From Bacteroidales bacterium (GTDB lineage: Bacteria > Bacteroidota > Bacteroidia > Bacteroidales > UBA932): a stretch of 64,000 bases of DNA. This document shows positions 22,437-23,182 of the stretch, piece by piece; position 1 is the first letter of the stretch; each line of letters opens with the position of its first letter. The DNA is taken from assembly GCA_017428945.1 (NCBI GenBank), contig JAFRPW010000033.1:21192-85191 (forward strand). The letters are read 5' to 3'. The notes below the pieces were generated by a model. The model ran no database searches. It saw only the letters and a list, made by a program, of their open reading frames with translations, and was not told the DNA's origin. The position numbers were made by a program, and so were the translations under genes.

Positions 22437-23182
22437 TACTCACGAGGGCCAAAGATATCGGTGCCAATGCGCACCATAGTGGCCGAATGCTTCACGGCAA
22501 GAGGCCAGTCCCCGGACATACCGATAGACAGTTCCGTAAGCTGTGGATAACTCTCCTGCAGTTTACGGAACAGTTTTTCTATCCTCTCAAAATCCTTCTC
22601 CACCACAGACATGTCATCCGTATTGGTTGCCATCCCCATGAGGCCTACAATCCGGACACCGGAGTCTTCAGAGGGTACACCTTCGGAAAACTGTGCCACC
22701 CTCGGCTCATGAGAGGGAGGGGCCCATTTATGGGAGGGGTCCGCGAAGCGGACGTTTTCAGAAGGTGTACCCTCTGAGGACTCCAGGGCCAGTATTATCT
22801 CTTCCTCTGTGAGGCCATGCTTGGTCTGTTCGGCGCCAAGGTGGAGTTCCAGAAGGACGTTTACGATGCGGCCATTCTCCACGGCCCATTTCCTGATTGT
22901 TTCAAGAAGATGGAGCGAATCTACAGACTGGACCAAGTCCACATAAGGCAGAACCAGCTTGAGCTTGTTGGTCTGCAGATGGCCTATGAAGTGCCACTGC
23001 ACATCCTTGGGCATCTGGGGCACCTTGGCGGCCAGTTCCTGGGGACGGTTCTCACCAAAGATTCGCTGACCGGCATCATAGGCTTCCATGAGCCTTTCTA
23101 CGGGATGGAATTTGGAAACGGCAACCAGCTTCACTCCCTCGGGTAAAGCCTTATACAGATTATTGAGATTCTCCTTAATCAA
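22433..23182 (-). CDS. yggS: YggS/PROSC family PLP homeostasis protein with an in-frame palindromic insertion
   Basis: A 249-residue member of the PLP-binding alanine-racemase-like barrel family. It has [10 protein letters not shown] with the PLP lysine, [22 protein letters not shown] and the C-terminal [32 protein letters not shown], all diagnostic. It buffers free PLP and affects amino-acid balance. About 40 residues (SSEGTPSEN...SEGVPSEDS) lie between ILALE and VRIVGLMGM, where relatives have a short loop. The DNA for that stretch is a 124-base palindromic element. The frame is kept, so the protein may still fold with an extended loop. It is the last gene of the operon from 27479, and its start overlaps the PAP2 stop. 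Confidence 0.9.
22661..22784. repeat. 124-nt cloverleaf-like palindromic element inside yggS
   Basis: Arms at 22661-22691 and 22754-22784 are inverted copies matching at 29 of 31 positions. Between them are three smaller inverted repeats: CCCTC/GAGGG around 22699-22717, CCCAT/ATGGG around 22723-22734, and GTCCGC-GAA-GCGGAC at 22739-22753. Each outer arm is itself nearly palindromic (core GGGTACACC / GGTGTACCC). The folded form would be a stem with three hairpins. The element keeps the yggS reading frame. No second copy is seen in this window. Confidence 0.8.

What the first reader, a model, noticed from the sequence alone, without database searches (positions are those of the whole stretch)
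22661..22784. A 124-nt cloverleaf palindrome inserted in frame within yggS
Inverted arms of 31 nt (29 matches) enclose three further hairpins, and each arm is itself nearly palindromic. The insertion adds about 40 residues to a loop of the conserved PLP protein without breaking the frame. In-frame palindromic elements inside essential-type genes are known in Rickettsia (RPE), but I know of no such description for Bacteroidales. The repeated SEG(T/V)PSE peptide comes directly from the palindromic arms.
Basis: partly seen in the sequence, partly recalled or inferred. Interest (0 to 1): 0.82.

Follow-up and report, generated by a model that had tools for sequence, protein, structure and literature searches.

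The report
Mobile palindromes translated inside bacterial genes
A hairpin-rich DNA repeat has spread through the genomes of one Bacteroidales genus and sits in frame inside working genes such as yggS, where it is apparently translated as an extra loop; its central part lies in opposite directions in different species, so conserved enzymes carry selfish DNA that seems able to flip.

Summary
A 124-nt palindrome (31-nt arms, 29 paired; three inner hairpins; fold z = -10.8) lies in frame in yggS. It is one of 10 dispersed places in this genome (three with weak or partial arms); 133 of 151 sampled genomes of the genus carry the family. In yggS it always occupies one loop: 24 of 80 sequences compared have it; the others have a shorter loop, another insert or a remnant. 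The family also sits in frame in TruB, MtaB, TilS, a PG_1098-type methyltransferase, RecG, QueH and others. It works like Rickettsia RPEs and intragenic REPs. (1) At the same site the core lies in opposite orientations in related species; in one yggS pair 107 of 107 core bases match only when inverted, although the flanking gene is 88-90% identical. (2) Arms differ between copies more than cores do, yet each copy's two arms stay complementary. (3) The same loops accept unrelated palindromes in frame. Copy number tracks RAYT-type transposase genes, but only 1 of 30 RAYT loci lies beside a detectable copy, so the mobiliser is inferred. Inversion within a living population is untested; the window's own copy would gain a stop if flipped.

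The parts
22433..23182 (-). yggS (PLP homeostasis protein), 249 aa, host gene read open through the insert
   Evidence: Pfam Ala_racemase_N 3.7e-19; PDB YggS/PipY matches on both sides of the insert
22661..22784 (-). the palindromic element as inserted (arms plus core), 124 nt
22754..22784 (-). left arm on the coding strand (encodes [10 protein letters not shown]), pairs 29/31 with the other arm
22661..22691 (-). right arm on the coding strand (encodes [10 protein letters not shown])
22692..22753 (-). core, 62 nt, the part conserved between copies; covariance model R1 hit 22687-22758 (85 bits)
22739..22753 (-). inner hairpin A (GTCCGC TTC GCGGAC)
22723..22734 (-). inner hairpin B (variable in length between copies)
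22699..22721 (-). inner hairpin C (CCCTC...GAGGG in this fold), in the most conserved part of the core

Best explanation
This is a copy of a non-autonomous, palindromic mobile repeat (REP/RPE-like) that has multiplied in one genus of Bacteroidales, probably rumen-dwelling. SHOWN: dispersed copies with a conserved multi-hairpin core (62-128 nt in yggS), complementary arms that differ between copies, and in-frame copies that recur in particular loops of conserved enzymes. SHOWN by open frames and by orthologues without it: the insert is compatible with translation and lengthens a loop of YggS. INFERRED: it is translated and tolerated because the loop is dispensable, so selection keeps only in-frame insertions there; the arms let the core turn round in place and are kept alike by template switching or gene conversion; and the copies are moved by an HUH (Y1) transposase of the RAYT type. 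No benefit to the host is needed to explain it.
For: Own genome: 10 places at E<=0.01. Genus: 133 of 151 genomes, own included. Order-wide sample: 6 of 295, own included. yggS: 24 of 80 compared sequences carry it, all in one loop and open. RecG: in all 30 loci read (the 30 best of 147 genomes with a match) the stretch between fixed anchors is open, while most relatives without an insert have only about 1-9 residues there. Orientation: L123/L126 cores 107/107 identical inverted and 0.51 direct, gene flanks 0.88/0.90; in those two genomes no other match above 73% spans the core. Own TruB against G056 TruB: 64/70 inverted; RecG G096 against G149: 70/70 inverted with 97% identical flanks. Parsimony needs 4 orientation changes among filled yggS genes, 2 forced by starred branches. 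Arms: in G097 six copies have cores 94-99% identical to the first; their arms match 24/24 to 32/32 within a copy (one 30/31) but average 0.49 between the seven copies compared. RAYT: 124 RAYT-positive genomes have median 9.5 copies, 27 negative median 1, p 1.7e-7; in genomes >=90% complete 11.5 against 1 (50 and 13 genomes), p 4.9e-6.
Against: Only 1 of 30 RAYT loci, the own genome's, has a detectable copy nearby, and the RAYT correlation is not corrected for kinship. That a flipped copy stays open is not special to genes: 21 of 29 verified genic copies outside yggS against 33 of 53 open phases in copies not verified as genic, p 0.47. The window's own copy gains a stop when flipped. Translation itself is not observed. 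I saw no clean target-site duplication in the filled/empty comparisons read.
Confidence: 0.85

Rival explanations
1. Opposite orientations at one site come from independent insertions, or replacement by another copy, at a hot target rather than from inversion in place.
For: Filled/empty status changes at least 15 times on the yggS tree; unrelated repeats use the same loops; in RecG the G096 and G149 arms differ strongly although the gene is 97% identical, and near-identical cores lie elsewhere in G096.
Against: L123/L126 share similar arms, flanks and a hairpin B that no other match above 73% spans in either genome; TruB own/G056 share similar arms.
Confidence: 0.3
2. The insert is kept because it serves the host: an RNA or DNA structure, or the extra loop, regulates the gene.
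For: The core changes less than the coding flanks (107/107 against 88-90%; 0.97 over 80 nt against 82-87%); RNA-modification genes recur among hosts.
Against: 56 of 80 compared yggS sequences lack it, it is gained and lost often, and the peptide differs by orientation. Host genes also include AroK, RibF, DsbD and UvrD.
Confidence: 0.12
3. The insert is skipped (translational bypassing, as in yeast mitochondria) or removed from the mRNA.
For: Palindromes interrupting coding genes are bypassed in Magnusiomyces mitochondria (mentioned in PMC6649704, section 14).
Against: No in-frame stop in any of the 24 filled yggS genes or the 30 RecG stretches; skipped DNA would not be expected to stay open.
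Confidence: 0.03
4. Assembly artefact: metagenome assemblers misjoin or invert short hairpins.
For: Nearly all named records are metagenome assemblies, and some contigs end at or near copies (e.g. G076 C6 and C59, G068 C71).
Against: Copies recur at orthologous sites in many separate assemblies with consistent frame. Arms of about 29 nt are shorter than usual k-mers (recalled).
Confidence: 0.04

Closest known systems
Rickettsia palindromic elements (RPE)
   Same: About 150-bp palindromes, dispersed, inserted in frame in unrelated genes (PMC10969869, passages), including TruB (PMC3733652, section 15)
   Different: Another phylum; core inversion between species is seen here and was not mentioned in the RPE passages I saw; arms differ per copy but stay complementary, whereas RPE arms are said to lose identity with time (PMC6649704, section 14). 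RPE sequences were not compared here
Intragenic REPs (GTAG/CGTC-tagged) and RAYT / TnpA_REP subclasses 2.4 and 2.6
   Same: Small palindromes, some inside ORFs including truB; [quoted passage not shown] subclass 2.6, mostly Bacteroidetes, has atypical secondary structures with copies elsewhere (PMC6006769 section 25)
   Different: REPs are 20-40 bp (abstract); this is about 90-195 nt with several hairpins and long arms; tag not tested; a detectable copy beside a RAYT in 1 of 30 loci
Intragenic invertons (Chanin et al. 2024, content recalled; title seen in the reference list of PMC11892184)
   Same: A segment between inverted repeats inside an ORF found in two orientations
   Different: Mobile, multi-copy, hairpin-rich core; no invertase identified; within-population switching not tested
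Coding palindromes of Nematomorpha mitochondria (PMC6649704, section 14 and passages)
   Same: Inverted repeats in coding DNA whose arms stay matched
   Different: Mitochondrial; no conserved mobile core described in what I read
Correia repeat elements of Neisseria
   Same: Small dispersed element reported to invert (PMC10969869, passage)
   Different: Mapped mainly upstream of genes there, not in in-frame loops

Membership tests
Rickettsia palindromic elements | Dispersed palindrome inserted in frame in unrelated ORFs | tested here: met
Rickettsia palindromic elements | Found in Rickettsiales | tested here: not met
   Copies found in the genus and thinly in the order; nearest named yggS records are Bacteroidales assemblies. 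Rickettsiales themselves were not searched
Rickettsia palindromic elements | Sequence similarity to an RPE family | not tested
   No RPE sequence was fetched
REP / BIME with RAYT | Copies flank a RAYT gene | tested here: inconclusive
   1 of 30 RAYT loci; genome-level copy number correlates with RAYT
REP / BIME with RAYT | 20-40-bp palindrome | tested here: not met
   Element spans 114-194 nt in yggS and 88-170 nt elsewhere
REP / BIME with RAYT | Fixed GTAG or CGTC tag at one end | not tested
   No tag statistic was run
MITE | Terminal inverted repeats of conserved sequence shared by copies | tested here: inconclusive
   Arms differ far more than cores, but are partly alike in G096 where cores are >=0.90 identical (17 pairs, mean best 0.76 against 0.49 for shuffled arms)
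MITE | Target-site duplication | tested here: inconclusive
   Filled/empty comparisons in yggS and RecG read by eye show no clean duplication; close empty sites may be scars
Intragenic inverton | Two orientations at one site inside an ORF | tested here: met
   Between species only
Intragenic inverton | Both orientations within one population, by a known recombinase | not testable with these tools
   No reads available
Rfam RNA families | Match at gathering score | tested here: not met
   0 matches in 22400-23250

The most novel reading that the evidence does not exclude
A mobile, self-inverting palindrome family acts as an intragenic switch: repeated flipping in place recodes a loop of core RNA-modification, repair and PLP enzymes while both orientations usually stay readable, and each rearrangement rewrites the two arms in concert.
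Probability: 0.25. Interest if true: 0.88.

Novelty: new variant of a known kind. Interest (0 to 1): 0.74.

Why it matters
Protein-coding palindromes were called a unique but recurrent feature of Rickettsia (a paper title that I saw only in reference lists). Here a species-rich Bacteroidales genus shows them on a wide scale, with orthologues lacking them, several families using the same loops, and many species in different states. That makes open questions testable by comparison: how selfish palindromes enter and leave proteins, how inverted arms stay complementary, and which enzyme moves them. For annotation it warns that conserved enzymes in this clade can carry 30 or more residues of repeat-derived loop, and that metagenome contigs may break at these hairpins.

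Tried and rejected
Arms as pre-existing target palindromes: in RecG, the one gene where I could look closely, most relatives without an insert have only a few residues in the loop, nothing like the arms. Arms as a palindromic target duplicated in direct orientation: left against right arm in direct orientation match 0.32-0.34, inverted 0.70-0.91. Arms as fixed element ends: not supported, since copies with near-identical cores have different arms; yet arms are not random either (G096: 17 pairs with core >=0.90, mean best arm identity 0.76; 250 pairs <0.75, mean 0.60; shuffled 0.49; Spearman over 378 pairs not significant). So the origin of the arms stays open. Arms as hairpins of their own: not significant. 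Flip-openness as proof of selection: not supported. Phage carriage: no match in the phage records at E 0.01. Local RAYT linkage: 1 of 30. In one search one host frame (L013) was set wrongly; corrected, where L080, L015, L017, L018 and L083 were dropped for weak arms. In one search the arms found for L122 were spurious, so one search leaves it out (20 of 23). In one search a fixed 20-nt ungapped comparison gave within-copy arm agreement of only 0.28-0.63 in six of eight genomes, where the arms are offset by a few bases; local alignment of the same arms gave 15/16 to 41/51.

Full report
CHECK. The coding strand of window 22661-22784 forms a 31-nt-arm inverted repeat (29 matches) around three hairpins, z -10.8. 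It is the longest of three inverted repeats reported for the window at the settings used. yggS (22433-23182, minus) stays open through it. Pfam and PDB relatives confirm YggS.

A REPEAT FAMILY. A DNA search of the own genome found six further dispersed places (of its nine rows one is the query itself and two are the arms matching each other). A covariance model of the core built from six copies (A2, R1) finds 10 places at E<=0.01; three of them (L015, L017, L018) have weak or partial arms. Five of the ten lie in frame in genes: yggS, truB, mtaB, tilS and a PG_1098-type methyltransferase (mtaB named from its close relatives). One has its core about 20 nt past the stop codon of a RAYT gene, with the arm abutting it (NF047646, E 3.8e-8, below its cut-off); one lies just beyond an ABC-transporter gene; the others are not in a verified gene. 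In the genus 133 of 151 sampled genomes have at least one copy at E<=0.01 (at most 31 candidates scored per genome, so high counts are floors). In an order-wide sample 6 of 295 have it, own genome included; the three outside copies that I read have arms of their own. The genus is not named by the tool; the nearest named yggS records are Bacteroidales assemblies, many with rumen in the title or isolate name.

HOST GENES. In the 29 one-per-genome loci (the top-scoring copy of each genome, so not a random sample) 16 lie in recognisable genes: MtaB 5, PG_1098-type 4, TruB, TruA, TrmB, AroK, RibF, an M20 peptidase and GcvPB (L031 and L053 named by eye; domain matches are not on both sides of the insert in every case). 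In the well-assembled genome G096, 10 of 29 copies lie in Pfam-supported genes: DsbD, HemN, TldD/PmbA (three copies), an RluA-type synthase (copy outside the matched domain), RecG, RsmF, QueH, UvrD (L077 by sharing the ORF of L060). These copies were found through a spanning ORF, so 'in frame' is built into that list. Fairer sets are orthologues found by homology: yggS (79 of 80 loci read through, L162 dropped as partial with stops) and RecG (30 of 30 loci read).

YGGS SITE. 144 yggS relatives were found and the best 80 kept; one of the six peptide patterns lies inside the insert, so filled genes may be over-represented. With the window, 24 of 80 compared sequences carry the element (L092 only at E 0.036, L118 and L119 at 2.6e-4), always between the 'EEEI' helix and the 'VRIRGLMGMA' strand, often with flanking peptides like EG.PSE and SEG.PS from the arms. 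By eye, several genes without it hold another short palindrome, encoding CHSERSEES (L117, L125, L130; L124 and L129 close variants), and L132 a remnant. Some look like scars of collapsed arms (L106, L116, L120), which is inference.

ORIENTATION. Cores at the yggS site occur in both directions: 17 sense and 7 antisense, window included. L123 and L126 lie in one starred clade of three (the third, L130, holds the CHSERSEES insert). Their cores match 107/107 inverted and 0.51 direct, whole elements 160/165 inverted, with gene flanks 0.88 and 0.90 identical. The complete query is found only at yggS in each of the two genomes; other matches there cover its ends, or span it at 72-73%. L101/L099 match 0.97 inverted. 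Own TruB against G056 TruB: 64/70 inverted, similar arms. RecG G096 against G149: 70/70 inverted with 97% flanks, but arms rewritten and similar cores elsewhere in G096, so replacement is not excluded. Parsimony needs 4 orientation changes among filled yggS genes; starred branches alone force 2.

ARMS. Within a copy the arms agree at 0.90 (own, 5 copies) and 0.91 (genus, 22 copies), 0.70 ungapped in G096 (9 copies), against 0.35-0.45 between copies (copies with short arms not counted). Allowing gaps in G096, 28 copies: 0.80 within against 0.49 for shuffled arms. In G097, L299-L304 have cores 94-99% identical to the first; L299 and L300 share arms, the other four differ, and each copy's arms match 24/24 to 32/32, one 30/31. 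In six of the eight genomes of that call a fixed 20-nt ungapped comparison gave only 0.28-0.63 within copies because the arms are offset; local alignment gave 15/16 to 41/51. L123 and L126 differ at the same arm position on both sides. So the arms vary faster than the core and largely in concert. The mechanism is inferred: template switching or conversion in hairpins, as discussed for coding palindromes in PMC6649704 (section 14 read).

READING FRAME. Turning the element round in silico leaves the yggS frame open in 21 of 24 (20 of 23 without L122), but not in the window's copy, L085 or L086. For other verified genic copies it is 21 of 29, for open phases of copies not verified as genic 33 of 53, p 0.47. 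So two-way readability is a property of the family, not proof of selection in genes.

MOBILISER. A RAYT homologue at E<=0.001 occurs in 124 of 151 genomes; copy number is far higher there. Only the own RAYT locus has a neighbouring copy that the model detects (1 of 30). RAYT is the best candidate, not shown.

OTHER PALINDROMES IN THE SAME LOOPS. In 14 near relatives the TruB, TilS and PG_1098 loops (14, 14 and 13 loci) hold, by eye, unrelated repeats in frame in several genomes: GGACCAGGTCC arrays, CCGGGAATGAC repeats, TCATTCTGAGCGAAG repeats and others. Some RecG loops hold another repeat encoding AIPLEGVQGVK-like peptides. These loops look like general acceptors.

KNOWN OR NEW. Full-text searches: 'palindromic' + 'Bacteroidales' + 'in-frame insertion' + 'repeat' gave 0 papers; 'Cryptobacteroides' + 'palindromic' gave 4, unrelated by title; 'palindromic' + 'Bacteroidetes' + 'intragenic' + 'open reading frame' gave 2, of which PMC3733652 is the REP survey; 'Rickettsia palindromic' + 'Bacteroid' gave 1. 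That library lacks most subscription journals. PMC3733652 (section 15 and passages) reports intragenic REPs in other species, including truB. PMC6006769 (sections 23 and 25 and passages) reports REP insertions within subclass 2.4 transposase genes, a subclass abundant in Bacteroidetes, and atypical REP-like structures with Bacteroidetes transposases. The phenomenon is known in kind; the family, its scale here, the orientation changes and the arm behaviour are new as far as I found.

Noticed in passing
L236-L249, L250-L262, L264-L277: TruB, PG_1098 and TilS loops of near relatives carry several other palindromic repeat families in frame (GGACCAGGTCC arrays, CCGGGAATGAC, TCATTCTGAGCGAAG).
   Followed up: partly
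L329, L331, L332, L333, L352 (RecG loop): A second repeat, encoding AIPLEGVQGVK-like peptides, uses the RecG loop and in L352 (and, it seems, L331) lies beside the palindrome in the same loop.
   Followed up: no
L122 and L176: yggS of L122 and mtaB of L176 hold another in-frame repeat encoding FVHQN-like peptides (in L122 DNA: GTGCACAAAA...GTTCACCAGA).
   Followed up: no
G000:C14:52341-53252: The own genome has 9 RAYT-like matches; this one has a copy of the element about 20 nt past its stop codon and a partial copy about 2 kb upstream (C14:55098-55181).
   Followed up: partly
G076:C6:1-70, G076:C59:1-70, G097:C1:46-114, G068:C71 end: Several contigs start or end at or near a copy, so the hairpins may break assemblies and copy counts are floors.
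   Followed up: no
window 22008-22436 and 22433-23182: A V-type ATPase K-like gene (named by eye) and yggS converge and overlap by 4 nt.
   Followed up: no
window 37318-37370: A 23-nt-arm inverted repeat with a 7-nt loop, possibly a terminator.
   Followed up: no
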